A DNA stretch of 64,000 nucleotides, taken from NCBI RefSeq assembly GCF_000975115.1, contig NZ_BBRE01000001.1, positions 434,001 to 498,000 of the forward strand, read 5' to 3'. Numbering within the stretch: position 1 is the first letter of the stretch; each line of letters opens with the position of its first letter. The notes beneath the pieces are model-generated. The model made no database searches and had not been told where the DNA came from. It saw only the letters and a program-made list of their open reading frames with translations. The stretch is from Demequina oxidasica. GTDB lineage: Bacteria; Actinomycetota; Actinomycetes; Actinomycetales; Demequinaceae. Below are positions 5,484 through 30,181 of this stretch, piece by piece. Both the position numbers and the translations under genes were made by a program.

Positions 5484-5512
5484 TTGCACCGGACTAAAAA
5501 GTCCACTAGTGT
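5484..5512 (+). promoter_or_regulatory. Promoter with an operator-like dyad in the spacer
   Basis: TTGCAC (5484-5489) and TAGTGT (5507-5512) are 17 bp apart, a canonical sigma-70-type spacing. The spacer holds the inverted repeat GGACT-AAAA-AGTCC (5491-5504), so a repressor could sit between the hexamers. Transcription would start near 5519, about 20 nt before the surface protein gene. Confidence 0.5.
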
Positions 5513-5538
5513 TTGAAGCACACTCACCTGGGGGACCA

Positions 5539-7326
5539 ATGCCGATGCTCAAGAGACTTACCGTGGCCGCCTGCCTTGCTGCCATCACCGGGGCCGTTGT
5601 CACGGCGCCAGTTAGCGCCGCGCCCGTCGAGACGGACGGAGGGTTCGAGTTCACCTGCGACTCGTCGGGCGACGCCAATATCACTGGCTACGTCGGCACA
5701 GACCTGGACATCACCATCCCAAACACGCTCGAGACTGCTGCGGCGGCGACGTGTGACGTCGTGTCCATCGACCAGAACGCCCTCAAGCAGATCGAACTGA
5801 ACTCAGTAGCAATCCCCGCAAGCGTGACGTTCATCGGTGGCGAAGCCTTCGCATTGAACGAACTCACGAGCGTCACCTTCCTTGCCCGCACCACCAATCT
5901 GACCGTCTACGCGGGCGCCTTTGCCGACCAGCAGAATTCCAACGGTGAAGTGACCGGTTGGCTCGACAGCGCGGGTGGACTCTTGCCGGACATTCCGCAG
6001 TCGTACCAGGCGGGCGACACGTTCACGGCGGTCTACACCCCGAACTACCTGGTCACCCTCGACTACGCGGACGGAAATCCCACCAACAGCTACCGCGTCC
6101 CTGAGAACACGCGTCTAGACGGCACCGAAGTCACCGGCCCCCTCCTCACCGGGAAGAAGTTCGACATACTGTTCGACGTAGCGATGGACCCGGACCACCC
6201 GCTTACCGGTTGGAAGACCGCTGCCGGAGCCGACTGGGATCCCACCACTCCCGTCACGAGTGACATCACCCTCACCGCGCAATACGGCGATGGCTCCACT
6301 GCCCCACCAACGGCCGACCAAGAATGGATCGTCACGTTTGATCCCGCGAACGGCGCAGGCACGTCCTGGACAACAGTCAAAAATGGCAAGCCCGTGGATG
6401 AGCTGGCAGCGCCCGCGTCTGGAGACAACGGCGAGTCGACTTTCCTGGGCTGGTTCAGTGGCGCTGGCGACCTGTGGGATTTCACCTCTGCGATCACAGC
6501 GGACACCACGTTGACCGCTCATTGGAAGCCGCCGGTAGCCACTAAACCTGTGCCACCATTCATCGTCGCCCCTAAGACCATCACCATTCCTGATGTGAAT
6601 CTAATAAGTCAGGAATCGCAGGACCTCATCCCCATGGTCCAGACCACGTTGACAATCGATGTGCCGTTCGATTTCAGCGACAAGGGCACACTCGACCTTG
6701 GCGGCGACATCGAACCCGCGCAGACTAACGGGGGGAAGGTGTCGAACGTGTGGCTATTTGGGAGAAGTCGGCAGCCTCTTGAAGTAGGTGGTTGCGCTCA
6801 GCTGCCTCGGGAGTTTGTCCCTCCTAAGGAAGGTGAGGCAGTCGATCTCAGCCAACTCCCTCAAGGTTGCCTCGACGCCATCGACGAGGCAACTGTGGTC
6901 GCCGGTCCCATGACTGACACTTATCAGGATTGCGAACCCATAGCCCACCTTGGCGCCTACTGGGCCTACCGAGGCGTATGCGTCTCCATTCGGTCTGAAC
7001 CCATGTACCTCGCAAGTTCGACGTTAGACGCGACCGGCAAGGCCACCTTCACGTTCACGCTTCCTGCGGACTTCCCACCCGGGCAACACACGCTGGTGTT
7101 CTCGGTAGCCGGCGAGGAAGTGCAGTTCCCCGTGACTGTAGCGGCCGTTCCGGCCGCGGTCACTACGGCCGCGGCACCTGAGCTCGCCCAGACCGGCCCA
7201 AGCGAGGCAATGATGCTCGGTAATGCCGCGGCGATGTCGATCGCGCTCGGTCTCTACCTGGTGTTCCTTGGACGCTCACGTAAGCCCGGCTTCGCCGGAC
7301 GCAGTAGTGGACCGGGACTGGCGTAG
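5539..7326 (+). CDS. Sortase-anchored (LAxTG) surface protein with LRR-like and InlB-type repeats
   Basis: A 595-residue secreted protein. It has a signal peptide (MPMLKRLTV... to about APVSAA), a BspA-like leucine-rich segment (about 60-130), two Listeria-Bacteroides/InlB-B-type repeats (about 170-260 and 265-335, each ending in the LTAxY/LTAHW pattern), a unique Cys-containing domain (about 360-500), and a C-terminal LAQTG motif at 549-553 followed by a hydrophobic span and an Arg-rich tail. LAxTG is the class E sortase motif of high-GC Gram-positives. ATG 5539 or 5545 follow the GGGGGA Shine-Dalgarno; the 30-nt extension upstream is not signal-like. Probably an adhesin or cell-surface interaction protein. 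Confidence 0.75.
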   Translation: MPMLKRLTVAACLAAITGAVVTAPVSAAPVETDGGFEFTCDSSGDANITGYVGTDLDITIPNTLETAAAATCDVVSIDQNALKQIELNSVAIPASVTFIGGEAFALNELTSVTFLARTTNLTVYAGAFADQQNSNGEVTGWLDSAGGLLPDIPQSYQAGDTFTAVYTPNYLVTLDYADGNPTNSYRVPENTRLDGTEVTGPLLTGKKFDILFDVAMDPDHPLTGWKTAAGADWDPTTPVTSDITLTAQYGDGSTAPPTADQEWIVTFDPANGAGTSWTTVKNGKPVDELAAPASGDNGESTFLGWFSGAGDLWDFTSAITADTTLTAHWKPPVATKPVPPFIVAPKTITIPDVNLISQESQDLIPMVQTTLTIDVPFDFSDKGTLDLGGDIEPAQTNGGKVSNVWLFGRSRQPLEVGGCAQLPREFVPPKEGEAVDLSQLPQGCLDAIDEATVVAGPMTDTYQDCEPIAHLGAYWAYRGVCVSIRSEPMYLASSTLDATGKATFTFTLPADFPPGQHTLVFSVAGEEVQFPVTVAAVPAAVTTAAAPELAQTGPSEAMMLGNAAAMSIALGLYLVFLGRSRKPGFAGRSSGPGLA

Positions 7327-7342
7327 TAGCCGCTCGTCCCCC

Positions 7343-7390
7343 ACGCGAAAGTGGCCGCCACCCCAACCGGGGTGGCGGCCACTTTCGCGT
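7343..7390 (+). terminator. Strong intrinsic terminator after the surface protein gene
   Basis: A perfect 22-bp inverted repeat (arms 7343-7364 and 7369-7390) with the loop AACC, 16 nt after the stop. It works as a hairpin in either direction. Confidence 0.8.
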
Positions 7391-7429
7391 AACAACAGGG
7401 ATGACCTGTCGCTATAAAACGACAGAGTG

Positions 7430-7447
7430 GTGGAGATGCCGGGAATC
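7430..7447. repeat. attL: 18-bp copy of the tmRNA 3' end
   Basis: GTGGAGATGCCGGGAATC is identical to 15166-15183 inside ssrA. At this copy the tmRNA-strand sequence continues as CCACCA, so this side keeps the original CCA-encoding end of ssrA. The small hairpin at about 7406-7426 (CTGTCG/CGACAG) left of the repeat may be the original ssrA terminator. This is the distal junction of the integrated element. Confidence 0.85.
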
Positions 7448-7571
7448 TCCCGCGAACACAGTTTTACCAGGGGCTTTTAGTTTTTTCGGGTTCGCCAGTC
7501 CACTCACGGACTAAAGCGCCCGCCTCGATGTTTGCGCATCGGACGGGCTGACGAGCTAATAGGAGCCCGCC

Positions 7572-7805
7572 GTGAACAAATCTACCTCGACCTCCGCCCC
7601 CACGACCAGCCGCGCCGATGAAGTCGCCGCATGGTTGATTGACGGCCACGTCGCCGCTGCGATGGACGCCCGCGACACTGCGGCCACTTTGCTAGACCTG
7701 GGCCGCTACTGCGAGGGCCTTGACTACGACCGCGACGCCGAACACCACCAGGGCATGGCGTGGATTGCGAACGCGGTCGCCACGCCCTACCGCCTCGCCG
7801 CCTAG
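7572..7805 (+). CDS. Small hypothetical protein of the ssrA element
   Basis: A 77-residue acidic, Ala-rich protein starting with GTG at 7572 after a good AGGAG Shine-Dalgarno (7560-7564). There is no signal peptide or membrane segment and no motif I recognise. The N-terminal 15 residues are Ser/Thr-rich and probably disordered; the rest is likely helical. It is the first gene inside attL and stands alone. Confidence 0.5.
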   Translation: MNKSTSTSAPTTSRADEVAAWLIDGHVAAAMDARDTAATLLDLGRYCEGLDYDRDAEHHQGMAWIANAVATPYRLAA

Positions 7806-8176
7806 CGACTCTGTATCGCTCCCTGGCGCTCTGTCAGGTGGCGGTGCAGGGCTTCTAGTCCTCGGCGCTTTCTCTACGTCTCAGCCGCCAAACGAGACGC
7901 CCGGTAAATGGAGCGTGACCGGCCTCCCGCCTCGGCGTTGTGATCGTTCCTGCAGGACGTCGCCCGGGTTCCACTAAAAACGCGTTCACTCAGTGAAGGC
8001 GCTAATTGTCGTGGGGCAGATCGGCTATGCGAATGGATGCCGGGGCAATCTTTGGGGAAGGGGACTCTCCGGGAGATTCAGGTGCGCAAGCACTCCGAGC
8101 CTTTTGTCAGTCCTCAGCAATAGACCAGAAGAACCACGTCGGGGTGGCCTCGGCGTCAACAACACATGGAGGAATC
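7806..8176. other. Intergenic stretch with no supported gene
   Basis: About 370 bases inside the element. Reading frames here lack ribosome binding sites and recognisable protein features. It should hold the promoter of the XRE-like gene that starts at 8177. Confidence 0.5.
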
Positions 8177-8680
8177 ATGAGTATTTCAGCAGAGCAGATG
8201 AAGGGTGCCCCGGAATGGGCTACACGTTACGAAATGAACGACGACGACAGCGCGGGTTGGTTCGTGCGCGACCTGACAAGGCACGTTGACATGACGACGA
8301 TAGATGGAGCCGTCGGGGGTAGCGCGCAATTGGTTCTCGAGAACGGTAGGCCGTTCGTAGTCGATGGCCCCACGGGCGAGTCGTGGGCCGACCCCAGCGA
8401 ACTTCGCAAGCTCGCCGCGCACTTGCTCAACGCAGCAGACGAGTGGGACAAGATTCGCAACGCCGAGATGCGCCGCGAAATGGCAGGCAACCTCGCACGA
8501 TTAATGGACCAGCGCGGCGTGGACGTCGCCGGCCTCGCGGACAGAATGGAGATCAACGCGGAGCGCGTCGAGGCATGGCTCGACATGTCAAAGGAACTCA
8601 ATGTCACAGAAGTCGCGATCATCTGTCACATATTCGGCGTAGACCCGAGCGAAATGCTCCCCGCGCGATTCTCGTCCTGA
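8177..8680 (+). CDS. XRE/HTH-like protein of the ssrA element
   Basis: A 167-residue protein starting at ATG 8177 after GGAGG. The longer frame from 8006 has no ribosome binding site. The C-terminal about 65 residues (RREMAGNLARLMDQRGVDVAGLADRM, then VEAWLD, then EVAIICHIFGVDPSEML) follow the layout of a Cro/CI-type helix-turn-helix, though with weak conservation in the recognition helix. The N-terminal about 95 residues are unknown. The position opposite the ImmA-type protease suggests a repressor/anti-repressor pair, as in ImmR/ImmA; this is inference. Confidence 0.55.
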   Translation: MSISAEQMKGAPEWATRYEMNDDDSAGWFVRDLTRHVDMTTIDGAVGGSAQLVLENGRPFVVDGPTGESWADPSELRKLAAHLLNAADEWDKIRNAEMRREMAGNLARLMDQRGVDVAGLADRMEINAERVEAWLDMSKELNVTEVAIICHIFGVDPSEMLPARFSS

Positions 8681-8688
8681 CACGCAAA

Positions 8689-8729
8689 AACGCCCCGCTC
8701 GTGGCCTCAACGGCTACGGGCGGGGCGTT
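8689..8729. terminator. Bidirectional hairpin between convergent element genes
   Basis: Arms AACGCCCCGC (8689-8698) and GCGGGGCGTT (8720-8729) pair, and the inner CGTGGCC/GGCTACG pairs with one G-U. On the minus strand the hairpin is followed by TTTTT (complement of 8686-8690), so it is a good terminator for the 9632-8774 unit. Confidence 0.7.
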
Positions 8730-8773
8730 GTGCATCCAGTAGTTCACAGGGGGCGGGTCTAAGGTGTGATCCT

Positions 8774-9148
8774 CTAATCGTCACGAGTATCGGGAAAGAG
8801 ATGTCGGGTGATGATCACGAGGATGCCAATCACTTGAACAACGCTGGCCGCAAACCATGCACTAATCACCGTCGGACTTGCGTTAGCGCCCATCGTCCCT
8901 AAGTAATTGCTCAAAACAATGAAACTAGCAACGATCGTGGCTACAACAACAGGAATGGTGCTCCAGAAAACGATGCGGCGCCAGAGCGTGTTCTGCTTCT
9001 CCTGCTTCGCACGCTCCTCCTTGATCTTTTCGGCGGGAGTCTTTTCGACCCTGGTTTTATCCGTGGCTTGACCCACCAGGGACTCGTCGAGTTCTATGTC
9101 CCCGCTAAGATCGTCAACTGAGTACTCGTCGCCACCCGCACTAACCAA
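8774..9148 (-). CDS. Small two-TM membrane protein downstream of the ImmA-type protease
   Basis: A 124-residue protein. The N-terminal half is charged, with a Lys/Glu-rich segment (about 35-52, coiled coil likely). Two hydrophobic spans follow at about 57-82 and 92-113. The start is TTG 9148, overlapping the protease stop by 8 nt, which implies coupled translation. I do not recognise the family. Coupling to an ImmA/IrrE protease suggests a membrane partner or target in an immunity or stress module. Confidence 0.6.
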   Translation of the reverse strand: MVSAGGDEYSVDDLSGDIELDESLVGQATDKTRVEKTPAEKIKEERAKQEKQNTLWRRIVFWSTIPVVVATIVASFIVLSNYLGTMGANASPTVISAWFAASVVQVIGILVIITRHLFPDTRDD

Positions 9149-9632
9149 TTTCTAAGCCCAGTGACCTGCAACGCTGGAGCGCTGCGGCGCGACTGACGCC
9201 GAAGATACGCATAAGGTCCCGCACTCGCGCTCCATCTTCACACTCAGCTGTAAATTCTGTTGCGGGCATGAGGAGATTTGCCGCGAAGTGCTCTGCGTAC
9301 CATTCGTGCGCGTTGCGGAGTTGGCCGCGGTGCTCGACGAAGGAGAACTCAGTGTCGCCGCGCTCCCTACGTTCCCACCAGTGCCCGAGTTCATGAGCGC
9401 AAGTGAAATTTTGTCTAGTCTCGATCTCATCGCGATTCAAGTAAATACGGGCATTCGCGTTCGCTTCTTTGACAATCTTGCCCGAGACATCCGGCCCGAG
9501 GTTCGCAGTCCACACCTCGATCTGAAGCGCCTCAGCAATTCGCATGGGGTCCACGGGAAACTCGCCGTCCCAGAAGTCGTCCAACACCAGGTCAGCTGCT
9601 TCTCTCGCAACTTCCTTAATGAGTCTCGCCAT
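9141..9632 (-). CDS. ImmA/IrrE family metallo-endopeptidase
   Basis: A 163-residue protein with the zinc-peptidase motif HELGH at 80-84 and the downstream EWYAEHFAANLLMP helix that supplies the third ligand, both diagnostic of the ImmA/IrrE (DUF955) family. In mobile elements these proteases cleave a cognate XRE-type repressor to induce excision genes. ATG 9632 follows a strong AGGAGGTG; the frame upstream to 9710 lacks one. The XRE-like gene at 8177 is the obvious candidate substrate. Confidence 0.85.
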   Translation of the reverse strand: MARLIKEVAREAADLVLDDFWDGEFPVDPMRIAEALQIEVWTANLGPDVSGKIVKEANANARIYLNRDEIETRQNFTCAHELGHWWERRERGDTEFSFVEHRGQLRNAHEWYAEHFAANLLMPATEFTAECEDGARVRDLMRIFGVSRAAALQRCRSLGLEIG

Positions 9633-10020
9633 ACGTCCACCTCCTAGAACAATGTCAACATAGCACCTGCCAACTTGATGCATGCTCACCGAATCACAGT
9701 GCACTGACATTGGGGCCCCGATCTACAGCCTTGATGACGCGCCGGAGCAACCATCTTTCTCACTTTCAAGGCCAAGGCCTCTGCGGGTAGTTGCATTTCA
9801 TCCTTCAGATTGAATCAGGGCGATTCGTGCCGCGAGGTTGTCGCGCGCGAGGTCGCAGTCTGCGAGCTAACTTCTTCGACCCCCTAGAACGGGCTCTCGC
9901 GGACTGCACCCATTGCGGTGGGGGCTTACCGAACGCCGTGCCCTCATGGGGGAACGTAGTGGTTACGGCATCGTCGGGCACTGCGTTGCTGTTTTTTTCT
10001 TGGTGGAGAGAGATTGCTTA

Positions 10021-10140
10021 GTGCCTAGGGGTGAGCGCGTGCCCCCTGGGTGGGGTACCTACCCCCTGGTGTGAGACGAATGCTCATTTCAATCTGACAT
10101 CTCCGTGTGTGAAAGTCTCAGTGCCAGGGGTGAGCGCGTG
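10021..10140. repeat. Pair of 20-bp direct repeats 100 bp apart
   Basis: GTGCC(T)AGGGGTGAGCGCGTG occurs at 10021-10041 and, without the T, at 10121-10140. The core AGGGGTGAGCGCGTG (15 bp) is identical in both. Spacing is about 100 bp. Candidate iterons or regulator-binding sites. Confidence 0.6.
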
Positions 10141-10187
10141 GCAGAGAGCGTGCGGGGAGGGTGCCCAGGGGGTCATAAGCGACCGTG

Positions 10188-10226
10188 GTGGGCGTGCCGG
10201 TGCCTGCTCAACACCAACACGCCCAC
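10188..10226 (-). terminator. Weak hairpin after the last gene of the element operon
   Basis: A 9-bp inverted repeat GTGGGCGTG / CACGCCCAC just beyond the stop at 10232 on the minus strand. The loop is large (21 nt) and no clear T-run follows. Confidence 0.35.
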
Positions 10227-10231
10227 ACTGA

Positions 10232-11023
10232 CTAGCCTTGGCTCAGTAGTCCTGGTGCGGAGGCATAGGCCTGTCGGTTGACGCGCTCTTGTTCCGCGGC
10301 GTGGCGGTTGGTGAGCGTGACCCGCAGCTCCTGGCGTTCCTTGCGTCGCTCGGCGTACTCGGTGAACGTCGCGAGGGACAAGGGTCGCGCGTGCTGGGCG
10401 GGGATCAGCGCGTCCCACTTGCCGGGGTGTGCCTCGTCCTCGTGCGGGCCGGCGAGGATCAATGCGTCATATTCTGGGCTTAGCCGCGCGAGACCGGTCG
10501 CGAGGGCTAGGTGCTTCCAGGCCGTCACGACGTCCCCCAGCGTGACGAGAGCTTCCCTTGCTTCCGTCTGGGCCTGAATGTCTCCCAGTCGAGTGGAGTG
10601 GTCGTTGGCGAAGTCCTTGATGCCCAGCGCGCTTGCCTCCTGGATCCGCGCGTCGCATTCATCCACGATTGTCGCCATGCTTGCCACGATCTCATCGGCG
10701 CTGTTGGTGAGCGCCTCGAGCCGGATGCCGACTGCCTCGGTTGCGAGGTGCGTGGCGATGTCGGGCTGTGCGAGGTCGATGCGCGTCAGTAGATCTTTTA
10801 CCGTTGCGGATTTCGCGGGGTCCTTGCCTGCTGCCATCGCGTCGGAGACTGCTCGGGCTACCTCCGCACGGGTTGGCGGTGTCGCCATGGCGGTGAGCTT
10901 GTCGGCCCGCTCGGTCGCCTCGAGGTAGGCGCTGGACATCTTGAGTCCGACGCGGCTCACGTAGCTCTCGACCACGGTGATGTTCGCGTTTACTGCGTAA
11001 GAGTTGCTGGAAGTGATGCTCAT
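10232..11023 (-). CDS. Hypothetical 263-residue protein of the ssrA element
   Basis: ATG 11023 follows AGGAGAAG, so this start is preferred over the long upstream extension, which runs antisense-like through the WhiB gene in another frame. The protein is hydrophilic, mostly helical and has no signal peptide. The C-terminal third is charged (AERRKERQELRV and AAEQERVNRQ). I do not recognise the family. It ends the long minus-strand operon. Confidence 0.6.
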   Translation of the reverse strand: MSITSSNSYAVNANITVVESYVSRVGLKMSSAYLEATERADKLTAMATPPTRAEVARAVSDAMAAGKDPAKSATVKDLLTRIDLAQPDIATHLATEAVGIRLEALTNSADEIVASMATIVDECDARIQEASALGIKDFANDHSTRLGDIQAQTEAREALVTLGDVVTAWKHLALATGLARLSPEYDALILAGPHEDEAHPGKWDALIPAQHARPLSLATFTEYAERRKERQELRVTLTNRHAAEQERVNRQAYASAPGLLSQG

Positions 11024-11073
11024 GTGATTCTTCTCCTGGTGTGTTGTGGATGGTTGTGTAAATCGTTCGCCGG

Positions 11074-11232
11074 TCATGGCCTGCTCGCCTTCGCACCCTG
11101 ATTCGCAGGGCACGACGATTCGTGTTTCACAATGACTCTCGTGCCACCCTTGGCCGTCGCCATGATTAGCTGCGTTGCTTTGCAGTGATCGCAGCCGCCT
11201 AACATGGTGAACTGCGACGTTGGGTGAGTCAT
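11074..11232 (-). CDS. 52-residue zinc-finger-like protein
   Basis: ATG 11232 overlaps the WhiB stop as ATGA, and the frame ends at 11074. The protein has a CDHC pair (residues 14-17) and a C-terminal HESSC (37-41), giving CxxC...HxxxC, a plausible single zinc site. The same HES(S/T)CP signature ends the 41-residue protein encoded at 11668-11543, so the two are probably related. The overlap, the shared motif and the lack of any other gene in this gap support it being real. Confidence 0.6.
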   Translation of the reverse strand: MTHPTSQFTMLGGCDHCKATQLIMATAKGGTRVIVKHESSCPANQGAKASRP

Positions 11233-11546
11233 GATGCGATCGCCTCCGTGCTCGTCTCACGCGAGACTTGCCGACGCTGTGCCTCATTGAGGCCTCCGTA
11301 GATTCCGACCTCTTTCGGGTGGGCAATTCCGTACCGTTGGCACGGCTCCTTGACCGGGCACCGCGCACACTCTTCGGCGGCGAGTGTGGCCTCGGCTGGA
11401 TCGTCCGATGTCCAGAACGATGGAGGCAAGACATCGCCACTACGGCACGGCACCGGCTGACGTTCATGTGTGGACTCAATGAGGGCGTTCAGACTGCGCC
11501 AATCGGCCACGAGTGCCGGGGGCATTGGTTTGGGCATGTAGGTCAC
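11229..11546 (-). CDS. WhiB-like iron-sulfur regulator
   Basis: A 105-residue protein with the WhiB pattern: a first Cys in VPCRSGD, the CARCPVKEPC cluster giving C-x2-C-x5-C, and the downstream GIYGGL turn. The four cysteines bind an Fe-S cluster that senses redox or NO in this actinobacterial family, and many members work with the primary sigma factor. The start is GTG 11546, overlapping the preceding small gene as GTGA. WhiB copies on mobile elements are known from actinophages and ICEs, where they can control element genes or alter host expression. Confidence 0.8.
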   Translation of the reverse strand: MTYMPKPMPPALVADWRSLNALIESTHERQPVPCRSGDVLPPSFWTSDDPAEATLAAEECARCPVKEPCQRYGIAHPKEVGIYGGLNEAQRRQVSRETSTEAIAS

Positions 11547-11668
11547 GAGTCACCCCTGTAATAGGGGCACGTCGATTCGTGGGCGATGGTTACCACGAAA
11601 TAGCCGGGCCGGACCTTAGGAATCGGAGCGGATGCCCCACAATCTGGGCAAGTGATGCGGTCTACCAT
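11543..11668 (-). CDS. 41-residue zinc-finger-like protein
   Basis: ATG 11668 overlaps the end of the RepA-like gene (ATGGTAG), and the stop overlaps the WhiB GTG. It has CPDC near the N-terminus and HESTCPY near the C-terminus, the CxxC...HxxxC plan shared with the 52-residue protein at 11232. Being nested between two overlaps argues for a real, coupled gene. Confidence 0.6.
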   Translation of the reverse strand: MVDRITCPDCGASAPIPKVRPGYFVVTIAHESTCPYYRGDS

Positions 11669-12750
11669 TCCGCACTCCCATCTCGCGACCCCTCTATGTG
11701 TGTCCCATCTGTCCCGTTGTCCCATTCGGGATCTAGTAGTGAATCCATTGGGACACTTGGGACAGTGGGGACACATGCATACAGGCCCCGTCCGGACTTT
11801 GTGATGCGCCCCGCCTCTGCAAGCCGCGCGAGGTAGCGGCGAGCGTCGGGGACCTTGAGCGCTTCCTCGACTTGCTTAGGAGTAACTGGCTCGGCCCGTG
11901 CCGTCACGTACTCGACTATTTCCGTGGATCTATCTCCTAGACCCTCGATCGGCTTGAGTTGCTGCGCCATACGTGCCGCATCGGCCAGGCTGTTGCCGTC
12001 GAGCGTCCATCTGCCATCATCAGTAGTGACGGCATATTCAGACTCTGGCACGTCGCGTCCAGTGACTTTGAGCGTGCCCGCATTGCCGCCTCGAGTGCGC
12101 GCCAGGGTGACCGTGAAGTCTGCCGCACCGTTGAGGCCATTGGTGCCACTGGTCGAATCCATCCAGTCCTCACCGGCAGCCCGCTTGTTGGTGTGGTGGA
12201 CGACAATCAGGCAAGTGCCCGGCGCATTGTCCGCGAGTTCTTTCAGTTGCGAGCCGATCCGATAGTCACGGTTGTATGCGCCCTCGCCCGGCAAGGCGGG
12301 CGGCATGACCTTGCCCAAGGTGTCGAGCACCACGAGCGGGTTCTCGGTGCCGTAAACCTCGAGCCATGCAGCGATTGTCGGTGTGACCATTCCTGGCTTA
12401 GCGATAGTCAGGTAATGCAGATTCGCGGGTATTGACTCGCCCTCGCCAAGGAGGTGACGGGCGCGGGACTGCAGCCGCTTCTCGCCATCCTCGAGCGCGA
12501 GCATAAGCACCGGGCGGGGGTGCCCGGTGGCAACCTTGCCGAGCGCTGGGAGTCCTCCGGCGACCGCGAGAGCGATTCCGTAGGCGGCCCAGGACTTGCC
12601 GGTTTTGGGTGCTCCGGTGAAGATCCCGAAGCCCTCTGGAAGGATGCCGTGGACGGCCCACACGAGCGGATCGAACCGCATGGCATCCAATTGGTCGCCG
12701 GTACGAATATTCGCGAGCAGGTCGTTTTCGGTTGCGCTGAGTTTGCTCAT
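11662..12750 (-). CDS. RepA-like AAA (RecA-fold) ATPase
   Basis: A 362-residue protein. Walker A GAPKTGKS is at 46-53, Walker B in ENPLVVLDTLG near 135, and a HHTNKR segment near 190 resembles the sensor region of hexameric RepA/RadA-type helicases. The C-terminal about 60 residues look like a winged helix (STEIVEYVTARAEPVTPKQVEEAL). This type is common in phages, plasmids and integrative elements, where it supports replication or primase loading. ATG 12750 overlaps the previous stop as ATGA. An unrelated member of the same broad group lies in the second element at 62169. Confidence 0.75.
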   Translation of the reverse strand: MSKLSATENDLLANIRTGDQLDAMRFDPLVWAVHGILPEGFGIFTGAPKTGKSWAAYGIALAVAGGLPALGKVATGHPRPVLMLALEDGEKRLQSRARHLLGEGESIPANLHYLTIAKPGMVTPTIAAWLEVYGTENPLVVLDTLGKVMPPALPGEGAYNRDYRIGSQLKELADNAPGTCLIVVHHTNKRAAGEDWMDSTSGTNGLNGAADFTVTLARTRGGNAGTLKVTGRDVPESEYAVTTDDGRWTLDGNSLADAARMAQQLKPIEGLGDRSTEIVEYVTARAEPVTPKQVEEALKVPDARRYLARLAEAGRITKSGRGLYACVPTVPSVPMDSLLDPEWDNGTDGTHIEGSRDGSAEW

Positions 12751-13091
12751 GCGACGCCGCCAAGTTCGCCGATCTTGATCCACCAGTCACGCATACGCCG
12801 CGGTGTGGCCTTAATCTCGACTGATCGTGTAGCGATCAATCGCACCCATGCGTCGCGATCCACCGCGATTACTTTGGACGGCCTCGAATTGAGCGCAATT
12901 ACTTGGATGGGGATGGACGGAGGCAGCTCCTCGGCCGCCCGTAGTTGCATGGCAACATCCGTACGCGATGTATCGATACACGCGGTGAATGTCGCCGTAC
13001 TGGGCGGCGGCACCTCTGGTGAGTACGGACAACCGCAAAACATGCGCCCGTAGTTGTGAACTGTGCAGTAAGTGGGGGTGCCGATGCTCAC
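12747..13091 (-). CDS. Hypothetical 114-residue protein of the ssrA element
   Basis: It starts with GTG 13091 overlapping the HTH stop as GTGA, and ends overlapping the RepA-like start as ATGA. The N-terminus has three Cys and two His (CTVHNYG...CGCP), which could bind a metal. The rest is an alpha/beta mix without a motif I know. Its place between excisionase and RepA suggests a replication or control accessory. Confidence 0.55.
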   Translation of the reverse strand: MSIGTPTYCTVHNYGRMFCGCPYSPEVPPPSTATFTACIDTSRTDVAMQLRAAEELPPSIPIQVIALNSRPSKVIAVDRDAWVRLIATRSVEIKATPRRMRDWWIKIGELGGVA

Positions 13092-13306
13092 GCGCGATCA
13101 CCCGCTGAAACGAGGTCAATGCGAGTTACTGGGCGCATTGCTCGCTCGAGGTCGCGTTTGCGGATGCGTATTAGACGCTTCCCGATGCGATAGGCACGCA
13201 AGTCACCGTCGGCGATCATGCGCCGAATGGTGTCGGGGTGGCATTCCAGGAAGTGCGATGCCTTATTAATTGAGAATGTGTCTTGCTCTGGGAGCTCTGT
13301 GGACAT
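13088..13306 (-). CDS. Excisionase/MerR-type helix-turn-helix protein
   Basis: A 72-residue protein with the HTH_17/excisionase layout: FSINKASHFLECHPDTIRRMIADGDLRAYRIGKRLIRIRKRDLERAM, i.e. two helices and a wing with the ...GDLRAYRIG...IRKRDLE pattern. Xis-type proteins of this size bend att DNA to favour excision and often double as regulators. ATG 13306 with GAGG 9-12 nt upstream. It heads the long minus-strand operon, downstream of the integrase unit. Confidence 0.75.
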   Translation of the reverse strand: MSTELPEQDTFSINKASHFLECHPDTIRRMIADGDLRAYRIGKRLIRIRKRDLERAMRPVTRIDLVSAGDRA

Positions 13307-13396
13307 GGCGAAACCTCGCGGTTCCGGCGCTCTGCACGATTCCGGCTGCCTCCACAGGCGAGCAACTATTTTCAGTGTAGCCGATTAGATGTGAAA

Positions 13397-13849
13397 TTAC
13401 ATGAGCACGGGCGCTTTGGGGTGCCCAGGAGTGATTCCGGCAACTTCGTCGAGAACGGTTTGGGCGTTGAGCGTCGAGAAAACGTGGCGGCATGCGACGT
13501 CCATTCCCGCCTCGCTACCCCATTCGGCCAGACTAGCTACTTCAAACACATGGCCGGGCCAGTGCCGATTCCCATCCAGAGTGTTCTTAACGCGCGCAGT
13601 CTCTACGGATCGTGCCGCGTTGAGTCCCGGCGAATACTTGTAGTCCTCGGTCGCACAATAAACCGTGTCGGCCACGCTGTAGATAACTGCGAGTGCGCAT
13701 CCACGCTTGCACCGATAGCGCTGCAGGGTTGCTTTGTTGAGGTATCCCCCGTCGCGCAATGCGATGTAGAGCGAATCGGCGTTCATTTGCTCAGCCTGCG
13801 CCGCCTCGGCGAGTTGCCTTATGAAGTTCGGTTCGTTTGAGGCACTCAT
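13397..13849 (-). CDS. Hypothetical 150-residue protein coupled to the integrase
   Basis: ATG 13849 overlaps the integrase stop as ATGA, so it is cotranslated with int. The protein has a Cys pair (RCKRGC) and is otherwise an alpha/beta mix with no known motif. The longer frame from 14071 runs antisense-like inside int and is rejected. It may modulate integration, or simply be an element gene using int's promoter. Confidence 0.55.
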   Translation of the reverse strand: MSASNEPNFIRQLAEAAQAEQMNADSLYIALRDGGYLNKATLQRYRCKRGCALAVIYSVADTVYCATEDYKYSPGLNAARSVETARVKNTLDGNRHWPGHVFEVASLAEWGSEAGMDVACRHVFSTLNAQTVLDEVAGITPGHPKAPVLM

Positions 13850-15015
13850 GACTGCTCCCCTAATCCAAATACGCTCATGCGCGATGTGTTGCTGCGATCC
13901 CGGTCGAGACTTGCGTGCTGGTAGCGCATCGCGACCTCTGCACTTGTGTGACCGCCGCGATACATGAGCTCGGCAAGCGTTGCGCCTGTGCGCGCGTACT
14001 CGGTGAGACCGGTATGCCTTAGCGAATGGAATCGAAAGCCGGGGCGCACGGCCTCGCGGGCGGTACGCCATGCGAGGTCAAATGAGGACTGCGAAACCGG
14101 CACCGTGGGTTTGCCTTTGCGTGGGAGCACGGGTGCGTCATCCGGCGCGGGCGTGAAGCGCTCGAGGTGGTCGCGAATCATCGGAACCAGCTCATTGGGG
14201 ATGGATAACTCGCGCGCAGATCCGGCCTTGGGCGTCGTATAAGTCGGCGGCGTGGCCTTCGCGTTCCACTGTCGCGCAATGTTCACCGTCGCCCGCGGAG
14301 CGTCCTCGAGGTGACGGAAGTCGCGGCGCTGCAAGCCGAGCACCTCGCCCTGGCGCATCGCGCACCATGCTCCAAGCATCACGGATACGCGCAACGATTC
14401 CGGCACGGCGGTCGCCAGCGCCTCAACCTCTGCGGGGGTCGCGAGGTCGGAACGGGCTAGCCCTCGGTCGCGTCGCTTTCGGGTGGATTCGATATGCGCG
14501 GCGAATGGTGACGCGGTGATGCCGCCAGCGCCCGCGGATATGGCGGCGAGGAACATGGAGCGGGTCACGCGCGCGACGTTTGTCCACGCGCCGGGCGTTG
14601 CCTTGAGCTTGCCGAGCATTGTGTCAATGTCGGCGCTTGCAACGTCCATGAGCCGCATGTGGCCGATGGAGGGGACGATGTGCGCTTTCAAGGTCGAGCG
14701 ATAGGAGCGAATGGTAGCGGGGGTACGCCCTGCACCCTCAAGGCGTTCGATCCAGTCATAGCCCCACTGTGCGACCGTGGTCGCCTCCACAAGCTCCAGA
14801 ACGTCTTGGGACGCACGATTTTGGCGCATCGCTGACGGGGGGATGAATATCCCTCGCGCCATTTCTGACCGTGCGATCGCCATCGCCGCCTTAGCGTCGC
14901 CCAGCGTGTAATAGTTGCCAATCGAGTGCTGCTTACCACGCCAGTACAAGCGCACTCGGAACATGCCCTCTGCGGACACGTTTATGCCTCGAGGCATGCT
15001 CGCGGGCTTCGCCAT
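13846..15015 (-). CDS. int: Tyrosine recombinase/integrase
   Basis: A 389-residue phage-type integrase with an N-terminal arm-binding region (1-60), a SAM-like core-binding domain (about 75-170) and the catalytic domain. Visible active-site residues are R221 (AMRQGEVLG), H330 and R333 (FHSLRHT), H356 (GGHTS) and the nucleophile Y365 (MRYQH). ATG 15015 follows GGGGAGA, better than the 15069 start. It lies 150 nt from the ssrA att site, the usual place for the integrase of a tmRNA-targeted element. Confidence 0.9.
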   Translation of the reverse strand: MAKPASMPRGINVSAEGMFRVRLYWRGKQHSIGNYYTLGDAKAAMAIARSEMARGIFIPPSAMRQNRASQDVLELVEATTVAQWGYDWIERLEGAGRTPATIRSYRSTLKAHIVPSIGHMRLMDVASADIDTMLGKLKATPGAWTNVARVTRSMFLAAISAGAGGITASPFAAHIESTRKRRDRGLARSDLATPAEVEALATAVPESLRVSVMLGAWCAMRQGEVLGLQRRDFRHLEDAPRATVNIARQWNAKATPPTYTTPKAGSARELSIPNELVPMIRDHLERFTPAPDDAPVLPRKGKPTVPVSQSSFDLAWRTAREAVRPGFRFHSLRHTGLTEYARTGATLAELMYRGGHTSAEVAMRYQHASLDRDRSNTSRMSVFGLGEQS

Positions 15016-15130
15016 GACAATCTCCCCAACTCGCCGGTCTAACGCAAGTCTAGTCAATTGCACTGACATGCGGTACTGTGCGTACTAGTGCGACTTGCAC
15101 CAACAAGTGAATGTGCTGGTAACAGGGGAA

Positions 15131-15160
15131 AGCCCCTGGTACCCGAAGGCACCAGGGGCT
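15131..15160. repeat. Inverted repeat beside attR (arm site or terminator)
   Basis: AGCCCCTGGT (15131-15140) and ACCAGGGGCT (15151-15160) form a perfect 10-bp inverted repeat with a 10-nt loop. A further copy of ACCAGGGGCT lies at 7466-7475 inside attL. On the minus strand it follows ssrA and could terminate it; as repeats flanking the core in the circular form they could be integrase arm-binding sites. Confidence 0.6.
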
Positions 15161-15163
15161 CTA

Positions 15164-15532
15164 TCGTGGAGATGCCGGGAATCGAACCCGGGTCCGCATG
15201 TTCATAGCCAGGTCTTCTCCGGGCGCAGCCTGAAGAATATTTCTCGGCCCCTCACCAACATCAGGCAAGCCGATGAGATGGGCCCAGTCATCTAAAAGTC
15301 CCGAACCTCCCGATGACGGAGAGATCCAGCAAGTTCCCTAGATGACGCCAGGAACCAGGTCGGGAACTACCCTGGGCTGACGGACTTCATTGCGCTCGCT
15401 TAAGCAGCGAGGGCGAAGTCGGTGCGCTTGGAATCGGCACCTATTAGTTTGCTGGGAGCGTTAACGAGATAACCCAACATCCTCGGCCCGCTTCCCCTGG
15501 GAAGTAAACACACGTCGAAACCGATCATCCCC
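15164..15532 (-). ncRNA. ssrA: tmRNA (transfer-messenger RNA)
   Basis: The 5' end GGGGATG (15532 downward) pairs with CATCTCC near the 3' end to form the acceptor stem, and a canonical T-arm (GGTTCGATTCC) precedes it. The reading frame after AATAGGT resumes at GCC and gives the tag ADSKRTDFALAA-stop, ending in the LAA degron recognised by ClpXP. tmRNA with SmpB rescues stalled ribosomes. Downstream of the discriminator A the DNA reads CGA instead of CCA, because the element replaced the original end, so the mature CCA must be added enzymatically. smpB lies 9 kb away. Confidence 0.93.
15166..15183. repeat. attR: 18-bp core within ssrA
   Basis: The same 18 bases as 7430-7447, forming the T-arm and acceptor end of the intact tmRNA gene. 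On the tmRNA strand the core is followed by GA rather than the CA found at attL. Confidence 0.85.
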
Positions 15533-15549
15533 TGTGCAGTTATGACTCC

Positions 15550-15576
15550 AGTCTAACTGGGACGCCCGACACGCAA
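15550..15576 (-). promoter_or_regulatory. Candidate ssrA promoter
   Basis: On the minus strand TTGCGT (15576-15571) and TAGACT (15555-15550) are 15 bp apart, about 17 nt before the tmRNA 5' end. The spacing is short, so this is tentative. TAGACT is also the -10 proposed for prfB. Confidence 0.35.
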
Positions 15577-15648
15577 CACCCCTACTCATCTAAGTGGACC
15601 TCAAGCAACGGCCGAGGCTCGGCAGCTCAAGGGTGATATGACGCGAAC

Positions 15649-17793
15649 TCACCTCGTCGCTTCCATTTTGGGTTGTCCTGGACGCAGAGCCGACGCCTTG
15701 CCCGGGCGCCACCAATTCCACTGACCTAACAAAGTCATGGTCGCAGGCAACAGCAAGCCACGAATCAAGGTCACATCAATCAAGATTGCGACCACCATCC
15801 CGATGCCGACCTCCTTCATCGCGGTCAGCGAGCCCAGCGCGAAGGCGAGGAATACGATCCCCATCGCGACAGCGGCGAGCGTCACGACGGGACCAGTCTT
15901 TGAGATTCCATCCAGGACAGCGATCCGATTGGCTTCACGCGGAGCCAAGGTCCGATCCCTCCTCCTCCACTCCTCGTTGATGCGTGCGAGCAGGAACACC
16001 TGATAGTCCATCGACAACCCAAAGGCGAGCATTCCAATGAATAGCGGCGTCGTGACGTCCAACGCTCCCCAGGGGTCAAAGCCCAGCAAGTCGCTCGCCC
16101 AGCCCCATTGAAATACCGCGACGAGAACGCCCAACGTAGCCGTGATCGTCAGTGCATTGAGCAACAGTGCCTTGAGGGGAACGACGACCGATTTGGTCAG
16201 AACAAATAGCAAGGCGAACGTCGACACAACAATAAAGAGCAGCGCGAGCGGTAACCGCTGCGTGAGATGGTCAATCGAGTCCACAACCTCGGCGGCAGGC
16301 CCGCCTACTGCAAAGGACAATGGAGAGTCGATCTGGCGAATGTCGCGCACCAGCGTCTGAGCGTCAACGCCCGTTGACGTCCCCAGAGGAGTGAACTCCA
16401 CTACCGTCACCGAGCTTGGAAGATCGGGAACCTGCCGCGCCTCATCAACTGTCCCGAATGACGCAGCCTCATCGAGAAGAGCGCGGACCTCGGGTTCCGA
16501 GACGGAGGCCTCGACGACCACGATCACAGGTTCAACTCCAAGATCCTGGAATCCATTGGTGATCGACTCGTATGCCCCTCTCTCCTCAGTCTTTGCCGGA
16601 AGTGAGTGAATGTCGGAACTGCCCAGGGTGAGAACAGCCAAGGGTGCAGCCATGATCAGCAGGGCGCCGGTGACAATGGCGGAAACGTAGATGGGGCGCC
16701 GTTGAGCAAAGGAGGTGAGCCGCCCCAATAGACCCCGCCCGCGCTGCGTTGCCAGGTCACGTCGGCGACCCCACCGTCGCTCCCCTTTTGCTGGAATTCG
16801 AGCGTGAATCACGGCGATCATCGCGGGAACGAAAGTCAGCCCCACAGCGGTCGCACCGATCACGGCCACCGAGCCGCCAATGGCCATACCGCTGAGCATC
16901 GGATCGCCCAAAACCAGCATCCCGCCGAGGGCAATGCAGACGGCGATGCCAGAGACCAGCACCGCCCTGCCTGCTTGCGCCATCGTACGACCCAGAAGCG
17001 AAACTGGGTTTGCTTGCGGGTCAAGCTCGCGTTCTTCCTGAAAGCGGGCTATCACCAGGAGACTGTAATCGACAGCCAAGCCCAGGCCCAGGATCGTCAT
17101 GATGTTGATGGCAAATTCGCTGACCGAAACCACAGTGACAGCCACTCGCATCAAGAGCAAAGCACTCGCAATCGCTACAAGCGCCGCAAGAATCGGCACC
17201 CCTCCCACTCGGAAACGCCCGAGCACGACAGTCAGCAAAATAATTAAAACTAAGATTGCGCCCGCCTCACCGATCGACGCCTCACGCACAGCTCGGTCGA
17301 CGAACTCCTGTTCGCCAAGTAGCTCTCCACCTACTTGGACCAGCGGGGCGGGCATGGTTCGGAGGATTTCCGCTACCTGATCTGCAACCTCGAGCGCTTC
17401 CTCATTTTCCAAGTCACCAGCGAGTTCGACGCTCACCAGCGAGCTTCGACCGTCGTCGCCGATGAGGCCACCGGCAGTGTAAGCATCGATCACTTCAACG
17501 ACGCCCGGCATTTCACGGATACGTTCCATGACAACGGGCGCCGCCGCGACCAAAGCTGGCGAATAGAAGTCCTCGCCAGAGATCACTCCTAGAACCGCCG
17601 GGCCCTCGGGATTGAGCTCATCCAAGTGCGCGTCGACCTGCATTGACTCAACACCCGGAGGCGCCGCGTCAATATCGACCGTCTTGTCAAAGACGGCACC
17701 ACCGAAAATTCCACCAACGAGGGCTATGACCGCCCACGCCCCGATAACGACATATGGGCGACGCGCCACTGACTTGCCGAGTCTCTCAAGCAT
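15649..17793 (-). CDS. MMPL family RND-type transporter
   Basis: A 714-residue membrane protein with the MMPL plan: one N-terminal TM, a large extracytoplasmic loop (about 45-170), five TMs, a charged linker (about 345-375) and the same order repeated, giving about 11-12 TMs. These transporters export lipids, fatty acids or drugs using proton motive force. Length (700-750) fits short actinobacterial MMPLs. ATG 17793 with GGAGAGG upstream marks the start; the 25 codons above it are not conserved-looking. Single gene between ssrA and the giant surface protein. Confidence 0.85.
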   Translation of the reverse strand: MLERLGKSVARRPYVVIGAWAVIALVGGIFGGAVFDKTVDIDAAPPGVESMQVDAHLDELNPEGPAVLGVISGEDFYSPALVAAAPVVMERIREMPGVVEVIDAYTAGGLIGDDGRSSLVSVELAGDLENEEALEVADQVAEILRTMPAPLVQVGGELLGEQEFVDRAVREASIGEAGAILVLIILLTVVLGRFRVGGVPILAALVAIASALLLMRVAVTVVSVSEFAINIMTILGLGLAVDYSLLVIARFQEERELDPQANPVSLLGRTMAQAGRAVLVSGIAVCIALGGMLVLGDPMLSGMAIGGSVAVIGATAVGLTFVPAMIAVIHARIPAKGERRWGRRRDLATQRGRGLLGRLTSFAQRRPIYVSAIVTGALLIMAAPLAVLTLGSSDIHSLPAKTEERGAYESITNGFQDLGVEPVIVVVEASVSEPEVRALLDEAASFGTVDEARQVPDLPSSVTVVEFTPLGTSTGVDAQTLVRDIRQIDSPLSFAVGGPAAEVVDSIDHLTQRLPLALLFIVVSTFALLFVLTKSVVVPLKALLLNALTITATLGVLVAVFQWGWASDLLGFDPWGALDVTTPLFIGMLAFGLSMDYQVFLLARINEEWRRRDRTLAPREANRIAVLDGISKTGPVVTLAAVAMGIVFLAFALGSLTAMKEVGIGMVVAILIDVTLIRGLLLPATMTLLGQWNWWRPGKASALRPGQPKMEATR

Positions 17794-17830
17794 GAAACCA
17801 AACCTCTCCGCTCCACTCACTAGAAGAGCG

Positions 17831-17863
17831 AGGGCCCCGGCATCGAAGCGATGCCGGGGCCCT
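17831..17863 (-). terminator. Terminator of the giant surface protein gene
   Basis: A perfect 15-bp inverted repeat AGGGCCCCGGCATCG / CGATGCCGGGGCCCT with a 3-nt loop, 14 nt after the stop at 17877 on the minus strand. No long T-run follows. Confidence 0.7.
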
Positions 17864-17876
17864 GCCACTTGTGATG

Positions 17877-22427: not shown

Positions 22428-22997
22428 CGTTGCTCCTTGTCGTAGGGAAACTGAAGAATGAGGCATCATTGCCACTTTGTTCAGCACATCACTTCGCCAC
22501 GCTACACAACTTTTGCCTCAGAAACGACCACTTATGTACTTTCTTCGACAAAGGATCATAAGATCAAGTTTTGTGGGCATTTCAACATAGAAGCGCCGAC
22601 TTTTGAGTATGAGTGCACTCAAGAACTGGCGACTTTGATAACGATAGATAACGGTGACTCGGCGAAAGTTCGGTACTTGCGTATCGACTTCGTAATCTTT
22701 AGTAATCTCCCAACCATCTTTTGTATGTTGGGAATCATATCTTGGCGCGGGATCCGATGGCGCCGGGGATTCTGAGTGCTTTTGGCCGGCTCTCACCGCA
22801 GTACTTACCTCTCTCCGACCGACGTCCCCCATGTCAGAGAGGACGTTTGTCTGAGGGGATCCGCCGACCCCCTCTGCGGTCTCGCCCTGTTGTTCCTCGC
22901 GGCCACCTCGAGCGCCGCCTTGCAGTTGCGACACGGCTGCCGGAGTCGACGGGACTGCCCTACCTGCCCTTGAAGCCTTGCAGTAATAGCGTGCGGT
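22428..22997. other. 570-bp gap, AT-richer than its surroundings
   Basis: No supported gene. From about 22440 to 22740 the sequence is clearly less GC-rich than the rest of the window. It contains a tandem GATAACG repeat one helical turn apart (22637-22643 and 22647-22653). It should hold the promoter and control sites of the giant surface protein gene. The remainder, to 22997, has only frames without start signals. Confidence 0.5.
22637..22653. promoter_or_regulatory. Tandem GATAACG repeat upstream of the surface protein gene
   Basis: GATAACG occurs twice with 10-bp periodicity, 210-226 nt before the minus-strand start at 22427. Same-face repeats are typical of activator or repressor sites. 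Function unproven. Confidence 0.3.
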
Positions 22998-24839: not shown

Positions 24840-24857
24840 GGCCCCATCATGCCGTGC

Positions 24858-25328: not shown

Positions 25329-25431
25329 GACTCACCTCCTCGACTCGTGACGACGCATGGCTTGCGGTGCGACCTACGAGTGTATGCCCTCAGGATGACG
25401 GGGGCGGAATCGGCGGCCTGACAGTCCGCCT

Positions 25432-28414: not shown

Positions 28415-28611
28415 GTTTCCGGGCGCGAGGGGAAGGACTCGTGCCACCGGCATCGTAAGCAAGCCGCTTGGGGCACTCGGGAAGGCGCGCCGATGCGTGT
28501 CGTGTGGGGGTCGTCACACGCTCGCCTCCCGTTCAGTCACGCATTCAGGCAGACGTCGCCCGTTGATCCTGGCAGGAGCGGTGCCGGTGGCTTCTGGGTA
28601 CCGTTAAAGGC

Positions 28612-29034: not shown

Positions 29035-29037
29035 AAG

Positions 29038-30144: not shown

Positions 30145-30152
30145 AACGAGCC

Positions 30153-30158: not shown

Positions 30159-30181
30159 GTCGGCGCGCGCAGTAGTGCCCG

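What the first reader, a model, noticed from the sequence alone, without database searches (positions are those of the whole stretch)
7430..15183. A 7.7-kb element integrated at ssrA with a RepA-like ATPase, WhiB and an ImmA-type module
Seen: the 18-bp tmRNA 3' end is repeated exactly at 7430 and 15166, with a full tyrosine integrase beside the intact ssrA. Known: ssrA is a classical target of tyrosine integrases. Inference: a compact integrative or satellite-like island. Its operon chained by 4-nt overlaps, the tiny zinc-finger proteins and the WhiB regulator together are a gene set I do not recognise as a described system.
Basis: partly seen in the sequence, partly recalled or inferred. Interest (0 to 1): 0.75.

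Follow-up and report, generated by a model that had tools for sequence, protein, structure and literature searches.

The report
Minimal phage-satellite-like island at ssrA
A 7.7-kb mobile DNA element sits in the tmRNA gene of a Demequina-like bacterium and carries the excision and replication genes of a family of phage hitchhikers, but none of the packaging genes that many of its relatives carry.

Summary
The last 18 bp of ssrA occur exactly twice in the 2.62-Mb genome (7430 and 15166) and bound a 7,736-bp insertion with an intact tyrosine integrase. Sister genome G003 holds the empty site: its flanks meet exactly at the 18-bp core. Related integrases sit at ssrA in three further genomes of the genus and in one of another family. 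The chain Int, Int-overlapping gene (g12), HTH_17 excisionase, g10, AAA_25 RepA-like ATPase, zinc-ribbon, WhiB, zinc-ribbon, g5 is not a stray set. Of 20 RepA loci outside the conjugative (TraB) clade and not cut short, 13 have terminase, portal, capsid or tape-measure genes nearby and none has TraB. A 10.2-kb relative assembled as a circle. Best reading: a minimal, packaging-gene-less phage satellite or its direct descendant; an ImmA-like protease/membrane-protein pair and an XRE protein lie downstream of g5, where some relatives carry TerS. Published PICI, cf-PICI, PICMI and AICE definitions each fail on at least one tested feature. The element also brings a hairpin that could replace the displaced ssrA terminator. 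Present mobility, helper, packaging site and cargo function are inferred, not shown.

The parts
7430..7447 (.). att core, distal copy (displaced ssrA 3' end)
   Evidence: junction with the empty site
15166..15183 (.). att core inside intact ssrA
15166..15532 (-). ssrA (tmRNA), target gene, intact
7343..7390 (.). native hairpin downstream of ssrA, now displaced outside the element (22-bp perfect inverted repeat)
   Evidence: also lies downstream of ssrA in the G003 empty site
15129..15162 (-). element-borne hairpin directly after ssrA; candidate terminator and/or integrase arm site
   Evidence: RNA fold z -5.1; present in 4 of 4 ssrA elements of the genus
7465..7477 (+). 13-bp TACCAGGGGCTTT, exact inverted copy of 15129-15141; candidate arm site
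13846..15015 (-). tyrosine integrase (g13)
13397..13849 (-). g12, 150 aa, overlaps int by ATGA; family shared with L099, L135, L136
13088..13306 (-). g11, HTH_17 excisionase/AlpA-like
   Evidence: PF12728 43 bits; phrog_66 excisionase 1.9e-5
12747..13091 (-). g10, 114 aa, no family
11662..12750 (-). g9, RepA-like AAA_25 ATPase
   Evidence: AAA_25 88 bits; phrog_6357 2.6e-43
11543..11668 (-). g8, small CxxC/HxxxC protein (longer start at 11776 possible)
11229..11546 (-). g7, WhiB-like
   Evidence: PF02467 47.5 bits
11074..11232 (-). g6, small CxxC/HxxxC protein
10232..11023 (-). g5, 263 aa, all-helical; precedes TerS or a tape-measure gene in 5 relatives
10020..10175 (.). patch with 4 CCAGGGG/CCCCTGG words and a 15-bp direct repeat; candidate cis site
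9141..9632 (-). g4, ImmA/IrrE-like metallopeptidase
   Evidence: PF06114 61.8 bits; PADLOC capP 2.1e-28
8774..9148 (-). g3, 124 aa, membrane-protein-like (by eye), overlaps g4 by 8 nt
8177..8680 (+). g2, 167 aa with C-terminal Cro/C1 HTH
   Evidence: PF13443 25.3 bits over 22
7572..7805 (+). g1, 77 aa, no family

Best explanation
It is a 7.7-kb integrative element that entered the 3' end of ssrA by tyrosine-integrase recombination, and by descent it is a phage satellite of the minimal kind. Shown: a precise insertion with an 18-bp duplicated core, intact int, xis-like and rep-like genes, an empty site in a sister genome, and kinship of the cassette with elements that carry phage packaging or virion genes. 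Inferred working model: phage infection, or loss of repression by the XRE protein g2 helped by the ImmA-like protease g4, turns on the leftward operon; Int, with the overlapping g12 and the HTH_17 excisionase, cuts out a circle; RepA (with g10) replicates it; WhiB and the zinc-ribbon proteins set timing or interfere with helper transcription; g5, which precedes TerS in relatives, acts in packaging or capsid choice; the DNA enters the helper's particles through a cis site, because no terminase gene is carried. g3/g4 and g2, downstream of g5 where some relatives carry TerS, are most likely exclusion or defence cargo, or the induction switch. The element brings a hairpin that can stand in for the displaced ssrA terminator, so that insertion need not disturb tmRNA.
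For: Insertion. Same integrase family at ssrA in G012, G020, G039 and in another family, G127, where an exact 18-bp repeat bounds 9.5 kb holding Int, Xis, an AAA_25 ATPase and g5. TerS (phrog_1496) lies within 3 kb of RepA in G019, G027, G341, G363: 4 of the 6 hits in 24 genomes. MCP (phrog_10) lies within 5 kb of RepA in G008, G019, G121, G125, G372: 5 of 13 hits. TerL, portal, tape-measure, MCP or TerS profiles match in L096, L097, L099, L101, L102 and L015, L017, L020. Locus table: 13 of 20 loci outside the TraB clade and not cut short have a virion/packaging gene, 0 of 20 TraB (with 44, 45). Tree: the window pairs with TerS-bearing L015 (100/99) in a 9-row clade (100/99), apart from the TraB clade (100/98). 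g5: 10 of 10 examined loci hold an integrase; TerS follows in L015, L136, L137, a tape-measure protein in L099, L134. A relative, L169, is a circular 10.24-kb contig with Int-Xis-RepA-WhiB and TerS-TMP. int / ATGA-overlapping gene / HTH_17 / replication gene order as in PICMI (PMC10803314, passages; overlap).
Against: No packaging or virion gene in the element: no such PHROG match in its 13 proteins, and the best tblastn of relatives' proteins is E 0.18 for TerS and 0.017 for a small protein after TerS. No helper marker in the host genome: 0 hits for the one TerS, one MCP and one TerL family tried; other families were not tried. No excised form of this element could be sought (no reads held). 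Scans of viral contigs with this RepA alone, this Int and the G012 Int found no relative. The two ssrA sisters whose cargo could be read (G012, G020) carry defence-type genes, and no RepA was found in them. The window's 9-row RepA clade also holds elements without a virion gene seen (L014, L016, L018). The RepA family also serves conjugative-type elements (7 loci). g5's role rests on position alone; its model matched no fold.
Confidence: 0.62

Rival explanations
1. A satellite or satellite-like element that lost its packaging genes and is now a domesticated, immobile island kept for its cargo (g2-g4).
For: No packaging gene; no TerS, MCP or TerL match in the host genome; ssrA sisters G012 and G020 carry defence-type cargo; nearest RepA relative L015 still has TerS.
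Against: Both att cores are identical and int, xis, repA and the overlap chain are open, so decay is not visible; g5-bearing elements without a recognised packaging gene recur in L135, L138, L139, L140 (only part of their genes scanned).
Confidence: 0.2
2. A small AICE-like or mobilizable element moved by conjugation, with the transfer function supplied in trans.
For: Int-Xis-Rep set; related RepA proteins lie beside TraB-like proteins in 7 loci (L103-L109).
Against: No FtsK/Tra or relaxase family among the 13 proteins; the TraB rows are a separate clade.
Confidence: 0.08
3. A decayed ordinary prophage.
For: Integrase and some other genes have phage relatives.
Against: Compact, gap-poor, with matching att cores and the same gene order as intact 9-10-kb relatives; no virion-gene remnant.
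Confidence: 0.05
4. A stand-alone anti-phage or regulatory island in which the ImmA/XRE/membrane-protein genes are the main function and mobility is secondary.
For: g4 matches capP 2.1e-28; g2/g4 weakly match the candidate pair PDC-M69A/B.
Against: These are 3 of 13 genes; no relative of g1-g4 was found at E 1e-3 in the relatives' gene calls; PDC-M69A match only E 1.1e-3.
Confidence: 0.05

Closest known systems
PICMI (phage-inducible chromosomal minimalist islands, Vibrionaceae; PMC10803314, passages)
   Same: Very small; int with a gene overlapping it by ATGA, an AlpA/HTH_17-type gene and a replication gene; no TerS, capsid-remodelling or known packaging gene.
   Different: Actinobacterial host; AAA_25 ATPase instead of a DUF3987/DUF5906 primase; no Fis; adds WhiB, zinc-ribbons, g5 and an ImmA pair. 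g12 was not compared with the iolg families.
Candidate actinobacterial PICIs and cf-PICI-like satellites (PMC10654092, PMC10690885, passages)
   Same: Tyrosine integrases at tRNA/tmRNA genes; RepA relatives sit in roughly 10-kb contigs with terminase, portal and capsid genes.
   Different: No capsid, portal, terminase or head-tail gene here.
Canonical PICI (SaPI type; layout recalled, packaging passage in PMC10690885)
   Same: Integrase, AlpA/Xis-like HTH, replication ATPase, cargo at the far end.
   Different: No TerS; int is co-directional with the rep operon, without a divergent repressor at that end.
AICE (pSAM2 type; PMC3218068, passages)
   Same: Int, Xis, Rep, small size; a related RepA clade sits beside TraB-like proteins.
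   Different: No FtsK/SpoIIIE Tra protein; Rep not of the Pfam types listed there.
ssrA-integrated islands (Dehalococcoides vcr islands, PMC3146451, search listing and abstract start; M. abscessus prophages at tmRNA, PMC10654092, passage)
   Same: Insertion at the tmRNA gene.
   Different: Other hosts and cargo.

Membership tests
Tyrosine-integrase element at ssrA | Direct repeat of the ssrA 3' end at both ends, adjacent integrase, empty site in a relative | tested here: met
Phage satellite (general) | Excision and packaging driven by a helper phage | not testable with these tools
   no reads or strains; kinship only
PICMI | Integrase (PF00589) | tested here: met
   50.7 bits over 27.1
PICMI | AlpA-type HTH (PF05930 or PF12728) | tested here: met
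   PF12728 43 bits over 27
PICMI | Primase with PF13148 and PF19263 | tested here: not met
   g9: AAA_25 is the only family over cut-off, neither primase family at E 0.1
PICMI | Fis (PF02954) | tested here: not met
   no match in the 13 proteins at E 0.1
cf-PICI | Own capsid, portal, connectors and terminases | tested here: not met
   no such PHROG match in the 13 proteins (one sub-threshold tape-measure match of g3, E 0.065, taken as chance)
Canonical PICI | TerS or other packaging-redirecting gene (recalled) | tested here: not met
   TerS: phrog_1496 0 hits in the genome; an unknown redirecting gene such as g5 is not excluded
Canonical PICI | Divergent stl-type repressor at the int/xis end (recalled) | tested here: not met
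   int, g12, xis, g10, repA all on the minus strand
AICE | FtsK/SpoIIIE Tra (PF01580) in the element | tested here: not met
   no match in the 13 proteins; the 4 of 5 G000 hits in view lie elsewhere
AICE | Rep of RepSA, RepAM (PF12307) or Prim-Pol (PF09250) type | tested here: inconclusive
   PF12307 and PF09250 not matched by g9; no RepSA profile was available
WhiB-like (g7) | PF02467 over cut-off | tested here: met
   47.5 bits over 23.6; four-Cys pattern by eye
CBASS capH/capP module (g2, g4) | CapP and CapH with a cyclase and an effector | tested here: not met
   g4 hits capP 2.1e-28; no CapH hit for g2 and no cyclase among the 10 of 13 proteins scanned; no cyclase family in Pfam for all 13

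The most novel reading that the evidence does not exclude
The window element represents a widespread, so far unnamed family of actinobacterial phage satellites marked by g5, an all-helical protein of about 260 aa without a recognised fold match, and an AAA_25 initiator. The family runs from elements with their own capsids, through TerS-only and TerS-plus-tape-measure types, to ones with no packaging gene that use a cis site (candidate 10020-10175). A sister clade of the same replication protein serves conjugative AICE-type elements. Members at ssrA carry defence-type cargo in place of packaging genes and bring their own ssrA terminator.
Probability: 0.33. Interest if true: 0.7.

Novelty: new variant of a known kind. 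Interest (0 to 1): 0.52.

Why it matters
[quoted passage not shown] This element and its relatives give a defined set of loci, with att sites, an empty site and candidate excision, replication and packaging genes, that makes satellite biology in this phylum testable. The RepA family spans packaging-type and conjugation-type elements, so it also shows how one replication module can serve two vehicles. The element-borne hairpin at ssrA is a small, checkable case of an integrating element that may protect an important host gene from its own insertion.

Tried and rejected
Searched the element and its flanks (7000-15600) for a TerS or virion-gene remnant with relatives' proteins: best E 0.18 for TerS, 0.017 for a small protein that follows TerS in L100; rejected as chance. 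DNA fold of 9860-10235: z -1.2, no special structure. Consensus scan of 7300-15700: 1 promoter-like and 2 terminator-like sites, against means of 2.3 and 6.3 in shuffles; it did not flag the ssrA-side hairpin, whose T-run is short, which counts against calling it a classical intrinsic terminator. g5 structure: first model pLDDT 74.4, second (11 rows) 87.7; Foldseek against PDB (both models) and BFVD (second) gave no match at E<=0.001; VIA rows (best Z 6.0) look like generic helical bundles; a known fold is not excluded. Spacers of the G012 array (20 tested) had only four 15-16-nt matches in held loci, E 0.005-0.02, taken as chance. g5 and g12 against phages, g3 against plasmids: no match. RepA against phages: 120 records, none covering 80% of it, most of them Microbacterium phages. 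CBASS was dropped for want of a cyclase.

Three RepA loci are cut short near RepA (L021, L110, L142) and are not among the 20; L020, L099, L100 and L143 also reach a contig end but were kept. L144 has a 1,228-aa tape-measure-looking protein that no profile tested and was counted as having no virion gene. MCP, TerS, TerL or tape-measure calls in L141, L143, L145 and L134 rest on phmmer matches to the other loci's proteins, not on PHROGs. TraB was detected by similarity to one protein (L103), itself an FtsK match of only E 1e-6. Of 12 genomes with a g5 hit, the two weakest hits (G223, G028) were not fetched. Of 80 viral-contig loci kept, 38 were annotated; L167 and L168 are pieces of one contig, and 3 of the 38 showed no recognised gene. 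L014's g5-like protein is borderline (E 0.0014) and was not counted. Only 10 proteins of L135, L138, L139 and L140 were scanned with PHROGs.
Full report
1. The observation. The 18-bp 3' end of ssrA is repeated exactly at 7430-7447 and 15166-15183, its only two copies in the 2.62-Mb genome (chance expectation about 8e-5). tmRNA is intact.

2. The insertion is real and precise. In sister genome G003, window 7035-7447 maps to L068 7407-7030 and window 15166-17897 to L068 7047-4318: the flanks overlap by exactly the 18-bp core with nothing between them. Of 47 genomes searched (all with a tmRNA match, 46 over the cut-off), 11 have an Int relative at E<=1e-20, and in 4 it lies beside ssrA: the window's own, G012 (79% identity), G020 (59%) and G039 (57%). 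G012 has one core variant at both ends, 18.3 kb apart; G020 has a distal copy 21.1 kb away (3 mismatches to our core); the G039 contig ends inside its element. In a genome of another family, G127, an Int (E 4e-60) beside tmRNA is bounded by an exact 18-bp repeat 9.5 kb apart, and the element holds Xis, an AAA_25 ATPase and g5.

3. ssrA keeps a hairpin. In nearly all loci printed a GC-rich inverted repeat follows ssrA (judged by eye; not seen in L029). The insertion moves the native one (7343-7390) 7.7 kb away. The four ssrA elements of the genus each carry, just inside their end, a hairpin in the ssrA sense: loops UUCG, UACG, CUCG, UUCG, energies -28.2 to -33.0 kcal/mol, z -4.4 to -5.2, with changes on both sides of some pairs between elements (by eye). 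G127's element also shows an inverted repeat there (sequence, not folded). Against this: the U-run is short and a rule-based scan did not call it a terminator. [quoted passage not shown]

4. Gene content. The leftward chain is int-g12 (ATGA overlap), then xis-g10-repA-g8-whiB-g6 (overlaps 4, 4, 7, 4, 4 nt), then g5 after 50 nt. Families over cut-off: Phage_integrase, Phage_int_SAM_3, HTH_17, AAA_25, WhiB, Peptidase_M78, HTH_26. g4 and g3 overlap by 8 nt; g3 and g2 converge across an inverted repeat at 8689-8729.

5. What the cassette is kin to. A RepA profile matched 20 of 396 genomes of the order at E<=1e-30 and 13 of 394 of the class at 1e-60. I examined 30 RepA loci: the window, L014-L021, L096-L111, L141-L145. 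Three are cut short (L021, L110, L142). Seven (L103-L109) have a TraB-like protein and none of the virion genes sought. Of the other 20, 13 (L015, L017, L020, L096, L097, L099-L102, L111, L141, L143, L145) have at least one of TerS, TerL, portal, MCP or tape-measure protein nearby and none has TraB. The 7 without are the window, L014, L016, L018, L019, L098, L144. Genome-wide, 4 of 6 TerS hits and 5 of 13 MCP hits in 24 genomes lie within 3 and 5 kb of RepA. In a 30-row tree the TraB rows are one clade (100/98); the window pairs with the TerS-bearing L015 (100/99) inside a 9-row clade (100/99) with L017 (TerS, MCP), L096 (TerL), L097 (MCP, portal, TerL), L141 (MCP) and three rows without virion genes. 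Long branches make the place of L137, L110, L145 and L111 unsure.

6. g5 and g12. A g5 profile matched 12 of 396 genomes. In the 10 loci examined an integrase is always present. Seven of them (L134-L140) were found through g5 alone. TerS is the next recognised gene in L015, L136, L137, and a tape-measure protein in L099, L134; the window, L135, L138, L139 and L140 have neither by these tests. A RepA-type ATPase is present in 7 of 10. g12 has homologues in L099, L136 and L135 with a shared KYSP..N / NTxDG..HW core. The ATGA overlap with int recurs in L136, and in G020 for a gene that the g12 profile does not match. In PICMI such an overlapping gene is needed for excision (PMC10803314, passages), so I propose that role for g12.

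7. Forms of relatives. A RepA scan of viral contigs gave 118 relatives, 80 kept. Of 38 annotated loci, 29 have a virion gene and 23 an integrase; the collection was chosen as viral, so this is biased. L169 (10,366 bp) ends in a 127-bp exact direct repeat, 1 of 25 full-length contigs tested, meaning a 10.24-kb circle or concatemer with TerS-TMP-Int-Xis-RepA-WhiB order. L168 holds two copies of a 10.2-kb unit (92.7% alike over 4.1 kb), and L163 is a looser case (91% over 1.0 kb, 79% over 1.7 kb). This is the window's order plus TerS and a tape-measure gene. It shows that such cassettes occur as circles or in tandem, not that this one does.

8. Cargo. Downstream of g5, where some relatives have TerS, this element has g4-g3 and, convergent, g2. 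g4's best PADLOC model is capP (2.1e-28); g2 and g4 also match the candidate pair PDC-M69A/B weakly (1.1e-3, 1.3e-5). The ssrA sisters carry Cas3e and Cas7e (type I-E) with 22 exact repeats (G012) and an Orf5/HEC-06 match (G020). An exclusion or defence role is likely but untested; g2/g4 as an ImmR/ImmA-like induction switch (recalled from ICEBs1) is the alternative.

9. Host and helper. The TerS, MCP and TerL families tried have no match in the host genome, so a helper, if any, probably comes from outside. Other terminase and capsid families were not tried.

10. A possible cis site. All seven CCAGGGG/CCCCTGG words of the element lie either in its two ends (3) or at 10043-10171 (4). None of 200 simulated sequences had four within 130 bp. 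Replication origin, packaging site or protein-binding patch are all open.

11. Comparison and literature. PICMI, cf-PICI, PICI and AICE definitions each fail on at least one tested point (membership table). Eight paper searches listed no description of this gene set. Papers seen as passages: PMC10690885, PMC10654092, PMC10023795, PMC10803314, PMC3218068; PMC3146451 in a search listing only. The library lacks most subscription papers, and a satellite survey I wanted (PMC10085698) was not held, so absence from print is not shown.

12. Verdict. Integration at ssrA: near certain. Satellite descent: likely (0.62). Present mobility, helper, packaging site and cargo function: open. New variant of a known kind.

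Noticed in passing
L064/L065 (genome G012), joined 16038-34315: An 18.3-kb sister element at ssrA with an identical core at both ends carries type I-E cas genes (Cas3e and Cas7e by profile, others by eye) and an array with 22 exact repeats.
   Followed up: partly
L066/L067 (genome G020), joined 1074-22200: A 21-kb sister element at ssrA carries a PADLOC Orf5/HEC-06-type protein and a PDC-S41-like protein among unnamed cargo.
   Followed up: partly
window 10020-10175: Four of the element's seven CCAGGGG/CCCCTGG words cluster here; the other three are at the two element ends. Candidate cis site.
   Followed up: partly
L163, L168, L169: Viral contigs with the same cassette as a circle (L169) or head-to-tail copies of about 10 kb (L168, less clearly L163); neighbouring copies differ by several percent or more.
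   Followed up: partly
L103-L109 versus L014-L020, L096-L102: One RepA-like ATPase family lies both beside TraB-like proteins and beside virion genes, the TraB rows being one clade.
   Followed up: yes
L017, L018, L097, L134: Integrases of RepA or g5 elements end next to a glutamine-synthetase-like gene (named by eye), perhaps another attachment site.
   Followed up: no
window 5509-7326: Large surface-protein-like gene beside the insertion, with a C-terminal LAQTG sortase-type motif (by eye) and a sub-threshold BspA-type LRR match.
   Followed up: no
L018 10456-16642 (genome G010): A RepA element without virion genes seen carries SNF2-type and Helicase_C/NOV_C proteins, defence-like cargo.
   Followed up: no
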